From: a virus
Virus record (IMG/VR): IMGVR_UViG_3300022221_000010
Coordinates: 1 to 56,760 of that record
Reading direction: 5' to 3' (one strand)
Length of the DNA stretch: 56,760 nucleotides
Numbering within the stretch: position 1 is the first letter of the stretch; every line of letters starts with the position of its first letter. Below, in pieces: positions 9,429 to 18,063 of this stretch. The translations under genes were made by a program, and so were the position numbers. The notes beneath the pieces are model-generated. The model was not told where the DNA came from. It made no database searches and saw only the letters and a program-made list of their open reading frames with translations.

Positions 9429-9435
9429 AATTAAT

Positions 9436-9516
9436 ACCCTCGTAATCCCCAGCGCTACGAACGTTGAGTAAGATAACTGGATGAAAATGCAGGTTCGAAT
9501 CCTGTCGAGGGTGCCA
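9436..9516 (+). tRNA. aberrant tRNA-Arg-like gene (ACG)
   Basis: Acceptor ACCCTCG/CGAGGGT pairs 7/7, then G and CCA; the T-arm with loop TTCGAAT is canonical. The middle is unusual. A 5-base stem CAGCG/CGTTG presents CTACGAA, a perfect arginine anticodon loop (ACG), only seven bases after the acceptor, leaving no room for a D-arm. The D-like stretch (AACTGGATG) comes after the anticodon arm. ATCC and GGAT can also close a large D-arm around this hairpin. It may be rearranged or decayed. Confidence 0.55.
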
Positions 9517-9524
9517 ATTTTAAT

Positions 9525-9937: not shown

Positions 9938-9965
9938 TTGACATTAATATTTAAATATGCATAAT
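9938..9965 (+). promoter_or_regulatory. sigma70 promoter of the tandem RNA elements
   Basis: TTGACA (9938-9943), a 16-base spacer and CATAAT (9960-9965). The predicted start, about 9972, falls exactly at the first base-paired strand of the first structured RNA. Confidence 0.7.
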
Positions 9966-9971
9966 ACCAAT

Positions 9972-10131
9972 CACGCACCGGCTATAGAAAAACATCCTTC
10001 TATTTGATACCGGAGCCGCAAACGGGGGTTCGAATCCTTCCCTCTCGATACTAACGAGGGGTAGTTTAATGGTAGAACAGCGGCATTACTAAACAGTTTT
10101 TCAACTTTCCAGTGCGTTTTATTTTTTTTTT
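9972..10131 (+). ncRNA. structured RNA element 1, enclosing a circularly permuted tRNA
   Basis: Outer stem P1: ACGCAC (9973-9978) with GTGCGT (10112-10117), plus GG/CC. Then comes the internal motif CTATA, and stem P2: GAAAAAC (9987-9993) with GTTTTTC (10096-10102). The conserved ATCCTTC (9994-10000) follows P2's left strand and AACTTTCC (10103-10110) follows its right strand. A long T-run ends it. The same plan recurs twice downstream. The space inside P2 holds a complete tRNA in permuted order (separate entry). It looks like a roughly 155-base RNA with its own promoter and terminator. I know no family that matches. Confidence 0.7.
10015..10084 (+). tRNA. circularly permuted tRNA-like domain (3' half before 5' half)
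   Basis: In order: anticodon-stem 3' strand GCCGC (10015-10019); variable AAAC; T-arm GGGGG-TTCGAAT-CCTTC; acceptor 3' strand CCTCTCG (10041-10047); linker ATACTAA; acceptor 5' strand CGAGGGG (10055-10061); TA; D-arm GTTT-AATGGTA-GAAC; A; anticodon-stem 5' strand GCGGC (10080-10084). All four helices pair fully (7, 4, 5 and 5 pairs, with wobbles), so the order is genuinely permuted. The acceptor is closed by seven bases and no CCA is encoded. The anticodon would depend on an unknown joining step. It may be a real tRNA precursor or a tRNA mimic. Confidence 0.7.
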
Positions 10132-10133
10132 GA

Positions 10134-10208
10134 ATAGAGGCTATAATCAAGCATCCTTCTAACTAATACTTTGAATGTGCTCTAGCTTGATAACTTTCCT
10201 CTTTTTTA
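10134..10208 (+). ncRNA. structured RNA element 2 of three
   Basis: P1 AGAGG (10136-10140) with CCTCT (10199-10203); CTATA; P2 ATCAAGC (10146-10152) with GCTTGAT (10185-10191); ATCCTTC (10153-10159); AACTTTCC (10192-10199); then a T-run. The insert inside P2 is only about 25 bases. The motifs match element 1 while the stem sequences differ, so the pairing is supported by covariation among the copies. Confidence 0.65.
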
Positions 10209-10213
10209 TTTGT

Positions 10214-10308
10214 ATTACTGGCCATAAATAGTCATCCTTCATCGATGCTGCGAAGCATCAGCCATTTAAGCTGACTAAAAAGAGACTATTAACTCTCCAG
10301 TATTTTTT
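10214..10308 (+). ncRNA. structured RNA element 3 of three
   Basis: P1 TACTGG (10216-10221) with CCAGTA (10297-10302); CCATA; P2 AATAGTC (10227-10233) with GACTATT (10284-10290); ATCCTTC (10234-10240); AACTCTCC (10291-10298); then six Ts. The insert forms a GATGCT/AGCATC hairpin and a CAGC/GCTG hairpin. It ends directly at the ribosome binding site of the TerD-like gene, so at least this copy may act in cis as a terminator or attenuator. Confidence 0.65.
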
Positions 10309-10321
10309 ACGGATGTATATT

Positions 10322-12364
10322 ATGAATAATTACGAAATCGCGATTCAATATCAAAATTCCATTCTGATCGAAAATTCTTCTGATTTTCTCAAGGATCAGA
10401 ATACATTATTAGTGGCGTCATTTAATGCGGAATTAATGAATCTCGGATATGTTCTATCTGAAGATGCGTTTACGTATTTATCCGGTATGCCGAAATCAAA
10501 CATTCTCGATACCATTAATAATACTATTTCTTATTTGAAAAAAGGTCTGGGTGCGGATGTCGTTCATAAACCTATGTATCAGGGTTTCCCTAAAGAGGTA
10601 ATGGACAAATCATATCTGGAATTGTACATGAATGCTATCGTCCATTATTGGACGCGTGGTCATTGGATGCCAGCATCTGAGAATTTACCTCGTGAGTATT
10701 CATTCGAAGAGGTTGAATTTAGACAATTGCGGTTTATGTTTCCAAGTGAATTGTTTGGAATTTTGGGTACTTTACTAGCATCAAATGATTCTTTGACCTC
10801 ACATGCGCGTGAAGCGATTGAATTTATGATACGTGATAACGATGTTATGTCGGGTGCCATATATAATCTACATATTCCCTTTAAAGAAAATATCGCAATC
10901 GTTGGTGCCTATGCGATCAATCAGAATAAGAGCATTTTTCCTTTTGTGAAAACTGCAACTGATATCTTGCGTGTTTTAGCACATTATTCGGGTGGTGATG
11001 CTTCACTGTCTGAGAATACCAAATTTAAATCTTTGCCACGTCCAGCTCGAAAGGATGTTGTTAAATGTCTTGAACGATTTATTAATGATGATGATATCGC
11101 ACGTTATTCAAATGTGTGGATTCGTGTATTCCATATGTTACACATTGGTGAATATAAATTTGCTGTCAAGAGTAATAAGATAGCGAAGAAAATTCGTGGT
11201 AATAAAAAATTGATCACGATTCGTTCAGAGTATGAAAAATTAGTTTCGGATGGTCAATTATCTGAAGCGTTAAAGCTGTTGTCCAAAAGACCGGGGGAAT
11301 CTATTCGTGAAATCGGTAGACTCGAACGTTTGGGATTAACAATTGATCTGGATTTTTTCCGTGAAATATTGCAAGGTGTTTCCACCAAAGTAATTTTACA
11401 GTTTATGGGATACTTGCGAATGCGCTCATCTGATCGTGATTCGAGAATTGTACTTCCCAAAGGATCGGTTGGGAAATCAATTAAGATATCCGGATTGGGT
11501 GCAATGGAATCTTGGATGACTCTACATGATAAATGTATGATAGAAATTCAATCCCGTTCCAATGTGGAAAATAAATTAAAACCAGTATGGATCGATGACC
11601 GTTTAAAAAGATGTCCAATACCATCCGGTATGCGAAGTGCATCTGAGTCGTTGAAGAATCTAACGCGTGGTACTCGTGTTCCTTTTGGTGATAAAGAGGT
11701 TTTACGCTTCTTTATATATTGGGTTGGTCAGGATATCGATCTAAGTGTACAATTTTTTAATGCTGATATGTTACTAGTTGGTCAGAATTCATATACCGCA
11801 ATGAGAAATAGTTATTCATGCCATTCGGGTGATATCACTCGCGCACCGAATGGTGCATCTGAATTTATCGATGTTCGTATCGATGATGCAATACTTCAAG
11901 GTGTTCGATATGTGTTATCGACTGTGTATGTATTCAGTGGTCCTACATTCAAAGAACATAAAGAAGCATTTTTCGGATGGATGACTAGGAATGGTATGGG
12001 TGAAGGTGGTGATATATATCAACCAAAAACTGTTGATCAAAAGATTGATCTTCGTGCGGAATCCAAAGTTGCTGTTCCTGCATTATTTGATTTAAAAACT
12101 CGTGAGATGGTTTGGATTGATTTGAATGCGCAAGTCGTTGGTGAATACAATAATGTGGAATCTACGAGAGTCGAGACTAGTGATCTTTTAAAATCATTTG
12201 TCGATCTATCCGAAACTAAATTATCGTTATACGGCTTGTTTGCGATGAATCATCCGAATCAGGTTGAGGATAAAGAAGATGCTGAATTCACCTTTGGATT
12301 AGATCAATCATGCGATATCACTCCATATGATGTCGAATTAATTCAATCTGAATATTTTAAATAA
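10322..12364 (+). CDS. large protein with C-terminal TerD-like domain
   Basis: About 680 residues. The N-terminal 400 look all-helical, with no clear family. The last 270 follow the TerD pattern: a strand block with F-I-Y-W-V-G-Q-D-I-D-L-S, then S-G-D-I-T-x-A-P-N-G-A-S-E-F-I-D-V, then Y-V-L-S-T-V-Y-V-F-S-G-P-T-F and D-L-K-T-R-E-M-V-W-I-D-L near the end. TerD domains bind calcium and belong to tellurite/stress-response systems. The start at 10322 is preferred over 10313, which leaves no room for a ribosome binding site. Expression is likely governed by the three RNA elements upstream. Confidence 0.65.
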   Translation: MNNYEIAIQYQNSILIENSSDFLKDQNTLLVASFNAELMNLGYVLSEDAFTYLSGMPKSNILDTINNTISYLKKGLGADVVHKPMYQGFPKEVMDKSYLELYMNAIVHYWTRGHWMPASENLPREYSFEEVEFRQLRFMFPSELFGILGTLLASNDSLTSHAREAIEFMIRDNDVMSGAIYNLHIPFKENIAIVGAYAINQNKSIFPFVKTATDILRVLAHYSGGDASLSENTKFKSLPRPARKDVVKCLERFINDDDIARYSNVWIRVFHMLHIGEYKFAVKSNKIAKKIRGNKKLITIRSEYEKLVSDGQLSEALKLLSKRPGESIREIGRLERLGLTIDLDFFREILQGVSTKVILQFMGYLRMRSSDRDSRIVLPKGSVGKSIKISGLGAMESWMTLHDKCMIEIQSRSNVENKLKPVWIDDRLKRCPIPSGMRSASESLKNLTRGTRVPFGDKEVLRFFIYWVGQDIDLSVQFFNADMLLVGQNSYTAMRNSYSCHSGDITRAPNGASEFIDVRIDDAILQGVRYVLSTVYVFSGPTFKEHKEAFFGWMTRNGMGEGGDIYQPKTVDQKIDLRAESKVAVPALFDLKTREMVWIDLNAQVVGEYNNVESTRVETSDLLKSFVDLSETKLSLYGLFAMNHPNQVEDKEDAEFTFGLDQSCDITPYDVELIQSEYFK

Positions 12365-12702: not shown

Positions 12703-13716
12703 ATGAACAAAAAATTCGACACTGCTGTTGTCATAGGCAGATTCCAAATACCACATAGTGGTCACCGCAAAGTATTCGACGAAGCTGCCAAATTAGCAGA
12801 TCGAATAGTTGTTATAATTGGTTCGGTTGGACAACCATCAACTCCAAAAAATCCTTTCTCATTCGAAGAAAGAAAGTCGATGCTTAGATCATTGCTCCCC
12901 GATATTCCATGCGATATTTTACCTGTTCGCGATCAAACCTATAATATCCAGAACTGGATTGTTGACGTAAACAACAAAGTTAATTCAACTGATCCGAAAG
13001 GCTGGACTGATTATCCACCAAAAAGAATTTTAGTCGGTCACCACAAAGATGAAAGTTCATTTTATCTGGATATGTTTCCACGGTGGAAATTTCATGAAGT
13101 TGAATCTGAAATGGAAATTCATGCAACTGATATCAGACAGGCTTTATTTGAAGGTAAATCATTTGATGATTTTGAATTTCTGAATAGTCACGTGAAATTT
13201 TATCTTCAAGGTTGGACTCTTTCAGATGATTTTCGAAGACTACAAGAAGAATATCAGTGGTTAAAGGAATATAAAGAAAAGTGGGGTTCAGGACCATTTG
13301 TTACCGCTGATGCAGTCGTTATTCAGAGTGGTCACATATTATTAGTTCAGCGTGGTGATAGACCAGCTATTGGCCAGTGGGCATTGCCGGGAGGATTCGT
13401 AAATCCTAAAGAAACAGTACGGCAAGCTGCATTGCGTGAATTGAAAGAAGAAACACGTATAAAGGTTCAACCAATCATTTTGGATCGAAATATTAAACGC
13501 TCCAAAGTTTTCGATGCGCCTAATCGATCACAGCGTGGACGTATTTTCACACATGCATTTTTGATTGAATTGGACGCAACAACATTGCCTCGGATACAAG
13601 CCAATGATGACGCCAAGGATGCAAGGTGGTTTCCATTAAATGAAGTTTTCTCGATGGGTGAAGTAATGTTTGAAGATCACCTTGATATCATTCTTAACAT
13701 GACTGGGGGTATGTGA
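12703..13716 (+). CDS. nadM: bifunctional NMN adenylyltransferase / Nudix hydrolase (NadM-like)
   Basis: 337 residues in two domains. The N-terminal nucleotidyltransferase has G-R-F-Q-I-P-H-S-G-H (about 12-21) with the H-x-G-H signature and I-H-A-T-D-I-R at about 141-147; it joins NMN and ATP to make NAD+. The C-terminal Nudix domain has the box G-F-V-N-P-K-E...R-E-L-K-E-E-T (about 230-252), in which the usual last glycine is Arg; it probably hydrolyses ADP-ribose. NadV follows two genes on, giving the two-step route from nicotinamide to NAD+. AAGAGGA precedes the start. Confidence 0.93.
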   Translation: MNKKFDTAVVIGRFQIPHSGHRKVFDEAAKLADRIVVIIGSVGQPSTPKNPFSFEERKSMLRSLLPDIPCDILPVRDQTYNIQNWIVDVNNKVNSTDPKGWTDYPPKRILVGHHKDESSFYLDMFPRWKFHEVESEMEIHATDIRQALFEGKSFDDFEFLNSHVKFYLQGWTLSDDFRRLQEEYQWLKEYKEKWGSGPFVTADAVVIQSGHILLVQRGDRPAIGQWALPGGFVNPKETVRQAALRELKEETRIKVQPIILDRNIKRSKVFDAPNRSQRGRIFTHAFLIELDATTLPRIQANDDAKDARWFPLNEVFSMGEVMFEDHLDIILNMTGGM

Positions 13717-13717
13717 G

Positions 13718-14074
13718 ATGGATAGAAATTATACACATTATACTGAAGTTAGTTATAGTGGTCGAAGATTACTTGAGCAACATCTTTTAAGCGAAAAGGG
13801 AATCTGGGAAGTTCGAGGTGAAGACCCCAATTGCGATATGGGTGGACCACACCATCAACCATTTCTTGGAATTTTTGAAGGTACTCTTGAAGACATTATT
13901 CATTATGCGGTGCAGATGGATGGTTTCTGGCAATGGGGTGGTGGTGGTAGTATCAAAAAAATGGAAATTGTTCCGCTTAAAGACGTGGAACGATTGGAAC
14001 AGGAAAAATTGAAAAAATCAGCATTGTCAAAATTAACTAAAGCTGAAAAAACAGCATTAGGTATAACCGAATAA
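13718..14074 (+). CDS. hypothetical protein (118 aa) within the NAD+ cluster
   Basis: Contains a Gly/His-rich patch M-G-G-P-H-H-Q-P-F (about 42-50), a W-Q-W-G-G-G-G run (about 72-78) and a charged, lysine-rich helical tail. It starts one base after nadM ends, so it is translated with it, and lies directly before nadV. The placement hints at a link to NAD+ metabolism, but no function can be read. Confidence 0.75.
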   Translation: MDRNYTHYTEVSYSGRRLLEQHLLSEKGIWEVRGEDPNCDMGGPHHQPFLGIFEGTLEDIIHYAVQMDGFWQWGGGGSIKKMEIVPLKDVERLEQEKLKKSALSKLTKAEKTALGITE

Positions 14075-14115
14075 TAATTTCATTATTCGTAACATTAAAA
14101 TAGAGGATTTCTATT

Positions 14116-15474
14116 ATGAAAAATATCATACTCAATACAGACTCGTATAAGCTCTCTCACTGGCCACAGTATCCCAAGGGTACTACTGGTGTCTTTTCTT
14201 ACGCCGAAGCGCGTGGTGGCGCATATGATGAGACTGTGGTGTTCAATATCCAGCCTTATATCAAAGAACTGGCCAAAGGTGTGACCATGGCGGATATCGA
14301 TGAAGCTGAAAAGATTGTACTGGCTCACGGTGAACCATTCAATCGCGAAGGTTGGGAATACATTGTTAATGAACTAGGTGGTAAACTTCCTGTTCGAATC
14401 AAAGCGGTGCCGGAAGGTAATGTAGTTCCGATTAGTAATGCTTTGGTTACTATCGAGAACACTGACCCCAATTGTTATTGGCTAACTTCATATCTCGAAA
14501 CCGGATTGCTGCGTGCCATATGGTATGGATCGACCGTTGCCACAATTAGTTGGAATATTAAACAACTGATTATGAAATATTTGAATGAAACCGGAACACC
14601 GGAAGATATCTATTTCAAATTGCACGATTTTGGTGCTCGTGGTGTATCATCATTCGAATCATCTGAAATTGGTGGTGCTGCACATCTGGTGAATTTCATG
14701 GGTACTGATACTGTGTCTGCATTACAATTCATCATGCGGAATTACAATACCGATGAAGTTGCTGGCTTTTCGATTCCAGCATCCGAACACTCGACTATGA
14801 TGTATGGTGGCCGCGAAAACGAAACCAAAGCCTATCGAAATATGCTCGAAGTGTATGGACCAAATGGAATATTTGCTTGCGTATCAGATTCATATGACAT
14901 ATATAATGCCGTTGAAAATATCTGGGGTGGAGAACTTCGACAAGAAGTGATCGATTCTGGTGCGACTGTTGTTATCCGTCCTGACTCTGGTGATCCTGTT
15001 GCCGTAAATCGAAGATTGCTGGATATTCTCGATGATAAATTTGGATCAGATGTTAATGATAAAGGATTTAAGGTTTTAAAACACGTTCGTCTGATTCAAG
15101 GTGATGGTATTAATTATAGCACTATCGATGCGATTCTATCCATGGCAGTCAGTAAGGGATTCTCTGCTGACAATTTCGCATTTGGAATGGGTGGTGCATT
15201 ACTGCAAGGGATGGATCGTGATACTCAACAGTGGGCGATGAAATGTTCCGCGATGGAAATCGATGGTGAGTGGATTAATGTATCGAAAGACCCTGTTACC
15301 GATCAAGGTAAAAAATCGAAGCCGGGTCGATTAGCTCTCGTGAAGAAAAATGATACATATTTTACTGTAAATGAATCAACTGATCTTTCGAATATTCTCG
15401 AAACTGTGTTTGAAAATGGTGAAGTGGTTAAGGAATATACATTTGCCGAAGTGCGTGCTAATAGCGAAAAATAA
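14116..15474 (+). CDS. nadV: nicotinamide phosphoribosyltransferase
   Basis: 452 residues, near the family norm. Visible signatures are T-D-S-Y-K-L-S-H (about 8-15) with S-Y-A-E-A-R-G-G, H-D-F-G-A-R-G (about 174-180) and V-I-R-P-D-S-G-D-P (about 291-299). The enzyme makes NMN from nicotinamide and PRPP; NadM then makes NAD+. In phages this pair can rebuild NAD+ after host NADase defences (established for the NARP2 pathway). AGAGGA precedes the start and a terminator follows. Confidence 0.96.
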   Translation: MKNIILNTDSYKLSHWPQYPKGTTGVFSYAEARGGAYDETVVFNIQPYIKELAKGVTMADIDEAEKIVLAHGEPFNREGWEYIVNELGGKLPVRIKAVPEGNVVPISNALVTIENTDPNCYWLTSYLETGLLRAIWYGSTVATISWNIKQLIMKYLNETGTPEDIYFKLHDFGARGVSSFESSEIGGAAHLVNFMGTDTVSALQFIMRNYNTDEVAGFSIPASEHSTMMYGGRENETKAYRNMLEVYGPNGIFACVSDSYDIYNAVENIWGGELRQEVIDSGATVVIRPDSGDPVAVNRRLLDILDDKFGSDVNDKGFKVLKHVRLIQGDGINYSTIDAILSMAVSKGFSADNFAFGMGGALLQGMDRDTQQWAMKCSAMEIDGEWINVSKDPVTDQGKKSKPGRLALVKKNDTYFTVNESTDLSNILETVFENGEVVKEYTFAEVRANSEK

Positions 15475-17384: not shown

Positions 17385-17409
17385 CCGTTTATAAATAGTA
17401 ATGTAAAAT
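17381..17409 (+). promoter_or_regulatory. promoter of the permuted tmRNA
   Basis: TTGACC (17381-17386), a 17-base spacer and TAAAAT (17404-17409), predicting a start near 17416. A TATAAATA late-type box (17390-17397) lies inside the spacer. Confidence 0.65.
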
Positions 17410-17415
17410 AGTTTT

Positions 17416-17790
17416 ATCATTGTATGAAGCGGATGATAGGTTGATAGACGCGGGTTCGAATCCCGCCATCTCCACCAGAAACGTTTGACTCATGTCAAAT
17501 GATCGAAAGATGCACTTATGCACGAGTGCTGCCTAGCCTTTCTAGATGGCGAAAAATGTACAGTAAATGTGCATCAGGGTACAGGGTTCGAATGTTTCTG
17601 ATGGGGATGACTTGGAATCGATGTCGATGCGAAAATATGTGGACAATGTATGTAGATTCATATAAAAAATCAAAAAAACAATAAATGCAAATGATGCACT
17701 TTATGACGGAGATTTCGCACTAGCTGCGTAATTGAAATCTGGGGGTTTGAGACTTCGGTCTGGTGTTCCTTATTACCCAAACACCATCTA
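17416..17790 (+). ncRNA. ssrA: circularly permuted (two-piece) tmRNA
   Basis: The acceptor piece comes first: T-arm GCGGG-TTCGAAT-CCCGC (17450-17466), acceptor strand CATCTCC (17467-17473), A and CCA (to 17477). About 125 bases later the coding piece begins with GGGGATG (17603-17609), which pairs 7/7 with CATCTCC and continues into the tmRNA-like 5' signature (TTGGAATCGA). The tag frame 17687-17731 reads ANDALYDGDFALAA then TAA, very like the E. coli tag ANDENYALAA. A pseudoknot follows: GGTGTT (17762-17767) with AACACC (17780-17785), and GGGT with ACCC. tmRNA rescues stalled ribosomes and tags the product for proteolysis. The exact 5' and 3' ends are uncertain. Confidence 0.9.
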
Positions 17791-17820
17791 ATAATTATTA
17801 ATAATATAGGTGTGGGCTAA

Positions 17821-18063
17821 ATGACAAAGAAGTTTAATCAGCAAGAATTAGAATTTTTAACTGAAAGTACAACCTTATCACTTCACAATCTAAGTAATAC
17901 CTTTAAATTAATGTATGATGAAGATTCACCTGAATCTTATAAAAAAATTCTTTATGGCATAACACTCATGTTGGATGATAAGAATTTTTGTCAAAATATG
18001 ATAGATGTAGCTGAAAGAAGCCAAACTTACTCAGAGGAAATTATTTCGCCGGTAAGACATTAA
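17821..18063 (+). CDS. hypothetical protein (80 aa)
   Basis: A helical acidic protein with no recognised motif. It begins after the tmRNA, with a purine-rich GGTGTGGG stretch upstream, and its stop overlaps the ATG of the phosphoesterase gene, so the two are coupled. Confidence 0.65.
   Translation: MTKKFNQQELEFLTESTTLSLHNLSNTFKLMYDEDSPESYKKILYGITLMLDDKNFCQNMIDVAERSQTYSEEIISPVRH

What the first reader, a model, noticed from the sequence alone, without database searches (positions are those of the whole stretch)
9972..10131. Complete tRNA in circularly permuted order inside a structured phage RNA
Seen: between 10015 and 10084 every tRNA helix can be formed, but the 3' half comes before the 5' half, with only ATACTAA joining the two acceptor strands. 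All 21 helix positions pair (with wobbles), the T-loop is TTCGAAT and the D-arm is glycine-like. The permuted tRNA's anticodon stem opens into stem P2 of a larger RNA. Known: permuted tRNAs are described in some algae and archaea, where a splicing endonuclease joins the halves; bacteria lack that enzyme. Inference: either the surrounding RNA or a phage ligase joins the halves, or this is a tRNA mimic (decoy for anticodon nucleases, synthetases or RNase P).
Basis: partly seen in the sequence, partly recalled or inferred. Interest (0 to 1): 0.9.

Follow-up and report, generated by a model that had tools for sequence, protein, structure and literature searches.

The report
Phage tRNA-mimic RNA beside TerD-domain protein
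A phage carries small RNAs, one holding a tRNA fold whose halves are in swapped order, next to a gene for an uncharacterised TerD-domain protein; the same RNA-gene pairing occurs across many phages and bacteria and looks like a Y RNA system with a different protein partner from the known one (Ro60).

Summary
Positions 10015-10084 form every tRNA helix in permuted order. A covariance model built without this window finds it at 46 bits (E about 1e-11), and all four helices covary across other loci. It is not a tRNA to be spliced. It is an optional apical domain on a short RNA core: P1, CUAUA/AACUUU internal loop, P2, AUCCUUCUA. Two more core RNAs follow at 10132-10210 and 10214-10305, then a 683-aa gene (helical N-terminus, TerD-like C-terminus), a RING-less relative of the MXAN_6230/SCO0854 family. 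The same core lies beside this gene's homologues in phages, Streptomyces, Paenibacillus, Planctomycetes, Verrucomicrobia and others, and Rfam has no family for it. Most copies carry no tRNA domain. One carries the tRNA in normal order with a UUCG loop instead of an anticodon.

The closest known RNA is bacterial Y RNA (YrlA), whose tRNA-like domain is permuted in the same way. Ro60-linked Y RNAs read here share the P2-U[AC]CUUC-tRNA layout. However, the partner here is not detectably Ro60, and the internal loop differs. I read it as a Y-RNA-like tRNA mimic in a RNP with the adjacent protein, perhaps for RNA repair or decay. Family and gene linkage are shown; function is inferred.

The parts
9938..9965 (+). 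promoter-like site TTGACA-16-CATAAT, 7 nt before the first RNA
   Evidence: 11 of 12 consensus positions; sites of this type are not rarer in shuffles of the region
9972..10131 (+). RNA1: core RNA (P1 9974-9981/10109-10116; internal loop CUAUA 9982-9986 / AACUUU 10103-10108; P2 9987-9993/10096-10102; AUCCUUCUA 9994-10002) carrying the permuted tRNA-like domain; ends in a U run
   Evidence: fold; descriptor and motif hits with 0-2 hits per shuffled window
10015..10084 (+). tRNA-like domain in circularly permuted order (3' half first, acceptor strands joined by ATACTAA, anticodon stem opening towards P2)
   Evidence: held-out covariance model 46 bits, E 1.1e-11; covariation in relatives
10132..10210 (+). 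RNA2: sibling core RNA with a short apical loop, no tRNA domain
   Evidence: descriptor 10136-10202, score 30; fold
10214..10305 (+). RNA3: sibling core RNA with a hairpin insert, no tRNA domain
   Evidence: descriptor 10217-10301, score 29; fold z -3.3
10313..12364 (+). 683-aa (or 680-aa from 10322) protein: helical N-terminal part, TerD-like C-terminal domain; RING-less relative of MXAN_6230/SCO0854 family; presumed RNA partner
   Evidence: NF041916 E 1.3e-96 but below cut-off; phrog_33734 E 5.6e-70; AF2 pLDDT 88; Foldseek TerD 3ibz E 4.3e-6

Best explanation
The element is the tRNA-mimicking apical domain of a Y-RNA-like small RNA. The phage makes three such RNAs from an array just before the gene of their protein partner. 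The shared core (P1, the CUAU(A/G)/(G/A)(A/C)UUU internal loop, P2 and the U(C/A)CUUCUA strand) is the probable docking site for the 683-aa protein. The variable apex (loop, hairpin or tRNA-like domain) projects from the complex. The tRNA-like copy offers a tRNA elbow and acceptor stack but has no anticodon and usually no CCA end, so it would recruit or occupy a tRNA-binding enzyme (by analogy with YrlA, PNPase and tRNA-modifying enzymes; possibly tRNA repair or anticodon nucleases) without being charged or decoded. Shown: the RNA family, its structure and covariation, its tight linkage to the gene, and the layout shared with Ro60-linked Y RNAs. Inferred: transcription, binding to the adjacent protein, the tRNA-binding target, and a role in RNA repair or decay during infection.
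For: A pairing-blind sequence motif finds 135 core RNAs on the gene's strand and 4 on the other; P2 pairs 4.87 of 6 positions against 2.71 when 3' halves are dealt among instances. In phage loci with a located gene, 51 of 51 lie within 1.5 kb of it; in bacterial loci 66 of 74. In 61 Streptomycetaceae genomes the exact motif occurs 5 times, always beside a RING-less relative of NF041916 (6 genomes have that form) and never in the 11 with the RING form. The RNA lies upstream in some loci and downstream in others, so it is not a leader. Permuted tRNA domains sit in the same core in L130, L132, L134, L153, L167, L183, L234, Weasels2 and others. One core holds a tRNA in normal order with a UUCG anticodon loop. 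The same model finds the tRNA domains of TROVE-linked Y RNAs, of which 24 of 26 have U[AC]CUUC just 5' of them. Rfam YrlA matches L153's RNA at E 9.4e-9 and the window's at E 0.073. In a Verrucomicrobiales genome (L183) tRNA-like RNA, this gene, rtcB and rtcA are neighbours, like the rsr-yrlBA-rtcBA operon (PMC7790460).
Against: No RNA or binding data exist for this phage. The partner has no detectable Ro60/TROVE similarity by profile or in the listed fold matches, so the Y RNA analogy at protein level is unproven. RtcB/RtcA neighbours occur in only a few loci. Most core RNAs lack the tRNA domain, so tRNA mimicry cannot be the core's main role. The window's match to Rfam YrlA is below its gathering score.
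Confidence: 0.66

Rival explanations
1. It is an ordinary Ro60-type Y RNA (YrlA) of the phage and the neighbouring protein is a very diverged Ro60.
For: Same permuted tRNA layout and U[AC]CUUC strand as TROVE-linked Y RNAs; helical N-terminal part; RNA-protein gene neighbourhood as in rsr loci; phages with Rsr and abundant nearby ncRNAs are reported (PMC12282133, PMC7824862, PMC7765460).
Against: No TROVE match in the window or by Pfam; hhalign against 14 TROVE proteins E 0.36-0.53, probability below 1%; no Ro60 among the 50 best fold matches listed; TerD-like instead of vWA domain; internal loop differs from the UGCGC.../CUUGAUCU of Ro60-linked RNAs.
Confidence: 0.15
2. It is a genuine permuted tRNA gene: the acceptor loop is removed by RNase P and Z, and the anticodon halves are joined after excision from the larger RNA by a ligase.
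For: All helices and tRNA-type T and D loops are kept; a few copies have ACCA after the acceptor strand (L132, L070, L071, L130).
Against: Acceptor loops of 4-6 nt including UUCG; no conserved anticodon or CCA; a normal-order copy with UUCG in place of the anticodon; most siblings in the same core have no tRNA.
Confidence: 0.04
3. The array is a cis-acting leader that controls the downstream protein gene, for example by sensing tRNA-binding proteins.
For: It stands directly before the start codon here and in many phages.
Against: In many loci, including Streptomyces, the RNA lies downstream of the gene; up to eight CUUCU strands in one array; each RNA is closed by its own P1.
Confidence: 0.06
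4. The mimic is mainly a decoy for host anticodon nucleases or for another tRNA-acting defence.
For: Phage setting among tRNA genes and an NAD-salvage pair, which counter such defences; PMC7790460 raises the same possibility for YrlA.
Against: The anticodon loop, the usual target, is missing; bacteria have the same system; most core RNAs have no tRNA domain.
Confidence: 0.09

Closest known systems
YrlA, bacterial Y RNA with tRNA-like domain (Rfam RF02553), partner of Rsr/Ro60 and PNPase (PMC8394870)
   Same: 5'/3' end stem, internal loop, second stem, and a tRNA-like domain in the same permuted order; in Ro60-linked RNAs read here also the U[AC]CUUC strand after P2
   Different: partner gene is not Ro60; internal loop CUAU(A/G)/(G/A)(A/C)UUU; most family members have no tRNA domain; below Rfam gathering score
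rsr-yrlBA-rtcBA RNA repair operon of Salmonella (PMC7790460)
   Same: tRNA-mimic RNA next to an RNA-binding protein gene, with rtcB/rtcA neighbours in L183
   Different: no rtcBA beside the phage copy; different partner protein
Listeria phage CKA15 Rsr-like protein and abundant ncRNAs near tRNA genes (PMC12282133)
   Same: phage RNA-binding protein gene near tRNA genes with strongly transcribed unannotated RNAs nearby
   Different: 57-kDa protein matching Deinococcus Rsr; no Listeria phage was returned as a homologue of this protein
MXAN_6230/SCO0854 family (NCBIfam NF041916)
   Same: same protein superfamily over the C-terminal two thirds
   Different: scores well under the cut-off, no CxxC motif of a RING, and only the RING-less form carries the RNA in Streptomycetaceae
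Permuted tRNA genes of algae/archaea; permuted tmRNA (RF04321)
   Same: 3' half of the tRNA fold precedes the 5' half
   Different: no tag frame, no conserved CCA or anticodon, acceptor loop often a stable tetraloop

Membership tests
YrlA / bacterial Y RNA (RF02553) | permuted tRNA-like domain (D arm, T arm, acceptor stack, anticodon stem) | tested here: met
   held-out model 46 bits; same model finds Ro60-linked Y RNAs
YrlA / bacterial Y RNA (RF02553) | long stem of paired 5' and 3' ends with an internal loop | tested here: met
   P1-loop-P2 fold and pairing
YrlA / bacterial Y RNA (RF02553) | score above the Rfam gathering threshold | tested here: not met
   20.5 of 69 bits, E 0.073; relative L153 43.2 bits, E 9.4e-9
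YrlA / bacterial Y RNA (RF02553) | encoded with a Ro60 (TROVE) protein | tested here: not met
   no TROVE in the window; the record is a fragment, so absence from the phage is not shown
YrlA / bacterial Y RNA (RF02553) | binds Ro60 and tethers PNPase | not testable with these tools
   needs biochemistry
Ro60/TROVE protein (for the 683-aa gene) | TROVE domain by sequence or profile | tested here: not met
Ro60/TROVE protein (for the 683-aa gene) | HEAT-repeat ring closed by a vWA domain | tested here: inconclusive
   model has helices plus a TerD-like domain; no Ro60 in the 50 best PDB matches shown
MXAN_6230/SCO0854 family (NF041916) | score above the curated cut-off | tested here: not met
   324.7 of 600 bits
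MXAN_6230/SCO0854 family (NF041916) | RING domain | tested here: not met
   no CxxC motif in 20 of 21 relatives checked; the translation of the window protein shows none
Functional permuted tRNA gene | anticodon loop and CCA end after processing | tested here: not met
   short stable acceptor loops, no conserved CCA or anticodon
Permuted tmRNA (RF04321) | tag reading frame and tmRNA model match | tested here: not met
   the window's tmRNA is at 17385-17822, not here

The most novel reading that the evidence does not exclude
A second Y-RNA-type ribonucleoprotein system, independent of Ro60, exists across bacteria and phages: a RING-less TerD-domain protein with its own small RNA family, in which the tRNA-mimic module of Y RNAs is an exchangeable apical cassette that can be inserted in permuted or normal order.
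Probability: 0.6. Interest if true: 0.8.

Novelty: new variant of a known kind. Interest (0 to 1): 0.64.

Why it matters
Bacterial Y RNAs are studied as partners of Ro60. Here an RNA family with the same layout, absent from Rfam, travels with a different protein in several bacterial phyla and many phages. That makes testable what the tRNA-mimic domain does, since it comes and goes on a constant core, and it gives a named gene class of unknown function a probable RNA partner. It may also explain how some phages manage tRNA damage.

Tried and rejected
Rfam at permissive E-values gave only YrlA as a sensible match. A search with the single protein in viral contigs found nothing, and the nine-sequence alignment had no usable stretch; a four-sequence alignment worked. 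The pattern TCCTTCTA...GGTTCGANTCC mostly returned ordinary tRNA genes, 93 of 123 sites. A structure-only core descriptor was too loose and was replaced. A first alignment of permuted domains was split in the acceptor strand and discarded. My first motif count on Ro60-linked Y RNAs was too strict, 13 of 26, and was redone. Homology of the partner to Ro60 was tested and not found. PADLOC has no model for the protein. RtcB/RtcA linkage is real in L183 but rare. The alanine-identity G3-U70 pair of tmRNA is not conserved in the permuted domains, against a charged two-piece RNA. Burroughs and Aravind 2016 and the Wolin reviews were not held, so an earlier mention of this pairing there cannot be excluded.

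Full report
What is there. The segment 10015-10084 forms all 21 tRNA pairs with the 3' half first; this is exactly its minimum-energy fold, although energy alone is only z = -1.9. ARAGORN does not call it. It lies in an RNA bounded by P1 (9974-9981/10109-10116), an internal loop CUAUA/AACUUU, P2 (9987-9993/10096-10102) and the strand AUCCUUCUA. A TTGACA-16-CATAAT site ends 7 nt upstream, and a U run follows. Two more RNAs of the same plan follow at 10132-10210 and 10214-10305, without a tRNA. The next gene, 10313-12364, encodes 683 aa.

More than chance. My permuted-tRNA descriptor scores 52 here; the best of 100 shuffles of the whole window is 37, and no other place in the window reaches 34. 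The descriptor demands pairing, so pairing counts on its own hits are partly circular. I therefore built a covariance model from 11 domains of other loci, window excluded. It finds 10015-10084 at 46 bits, E 1.1e-11, with the next window hit at 21.8 bits. In that alignment 96.5% of cells pair against 64.9% when shuffled and 33-49% when slid, with changes on both sides in 17 of 21 pairs. The 11 sequences were themselves picked with the descriptor, so these percentages lean upwards; the held-out hit in the window does not depend on that.

The RNA family. Homologues of the 683-aa protein were collected from annotated phages, IMG/VR contigs and bacterial genomes. The same core RNAs stand beside them, often as arrays. 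A motif chosen without regard to pairing gives 135 sites on the gene's strand and 4 on the other; P1 and P2 pair far better than when 3' halves are exchanged, 3.67 against 1.94 of 5 and 4.87 against 2.71 of 6. In phage loci all 51 located sites lie within 1.5 kb of the gene; in bacterial loci 66 of 74 do, upstream or downstream. In 61 Streptomycetaceae genomes the exact pattern occurs in five, each time within about 250 bp of a RING-less relative of NF041916, a form carried by six of the genomes; none of the 11 genomes with the RING form has it (by my arithmetic about one in a million by chance). Rfam has no family for it.

The tRNA domain is an optional cassette. Among descriptor-found cores 129 have no tRNA (median insert 24 nt), 16 have a permuted one, and one (L134 3394-3522) has a tRNA in normal order whose anticodon loop is a UUCG tetraloop. 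The no-tRNA class was counted only in loci with the gene, so these are not frequencies. Acceptor loops range from UUCG to long loops; a few begin with ACCA. What is kept is the elbow, acceptor stack and anticodon stem, not a charging end or an anticodon. This fits a mimic and argues against splicing.

The protein. AlphaFold2 gives a confident model, pLDDT 88. The C-terminal domain matches TerD structures, best 3ibz at E 4.3e-6. The helical part folded alone has no significant PDB match. Comparison with 14 TROVE proteins is not significant, and the window has no TROVE match. NF041916 matches at E 1.3e-96 but below its cut-off.

Relation to Y RNA. YrlA is a known bacterial tRNA mimic of the same permuted order, tied to Ro60 and PNPase (PMC8394870; Rfam alignment). 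I read loci with true TROVE genes. Their Y RNAs are found by the model built from the TerD-linked set and have U[AC]CUUC just 5' of the tRNA domain in 24 of 26 cases, against 19 of 188 background stretches. The same strand therefore follows P2 in both groups, which suggests common descent or module exchange. The internal loop next to P1 differs, as expected for a different partner. Rfam YrlA matches a phage relative at E 9.4e-9.

Function. A role in RNA repair or decay is inferred from the Y RNA analogy, from rtcB and rtcA beside the system in L183, from a tRNA nucleotidyltransferase gene beside it in two phages, and from the phage setting among tRNA genes. A phage with an Rsr-like protein near strongly transcribed unannotated RNAs by its tRNA genes (PMC12282133) is a parallel, not a homologue. 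No expression or binding was tested here.

Novelty. Phage Y RNAs and Ro60 are already reported (PMC7824862, PMC7765460, PMC12282133), and permuted tRNA mimicry is known from YrlA, so the tRNA order itself is not new. I found no description of this RNA family or of its linkage to a RING-less TerD-domain protein; several key papers were not readable.

Noticed in passing
window 17385-17822: A permuted tmRNA gene (ARAGORN tag ANDALYDGDFALAA; Rfam RF04321, 106 bits). Phages RpAliso and RcXuper (L004, L005) also carry a permuted tmRNA, next to their core RNAs.
   Followed up: no
window 12703-15474: Two-gene NAD-salvage module: nucleotidyltransferase-Nudix fusion (12703-13716) and nicotinamide phosphoribosyltransferase (14116-15474), just downstream of the finding.
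   Followed up: partly
window 9430-9520: Between the tRNA-Leu and tRNA-Met genes lies a sequence with matching acceptor-like strands ACCCTCG/CGAGGGT and a T arm (GCAGGTTCGAATCCTGT) that ARAGORN does not call; perhaps a degenerate or unusual tRNA.
   Followed up: no
L260-L286 (TROVE loci): Ro60-linked Y RNAs of Actinomycetes and Bacteroidota occur in several copies per locus with a conserved U[AC]CUUC strand after P2; in the five loci scanned, none reached the Rfam YrlA gathering threshold.
   Followed up: partly
L134 3394-3522: A tRNA in normal order, with UUCG instead of an anticodon loop, inserted in the same core RNA as the permuted ones.
   Followed up: yes
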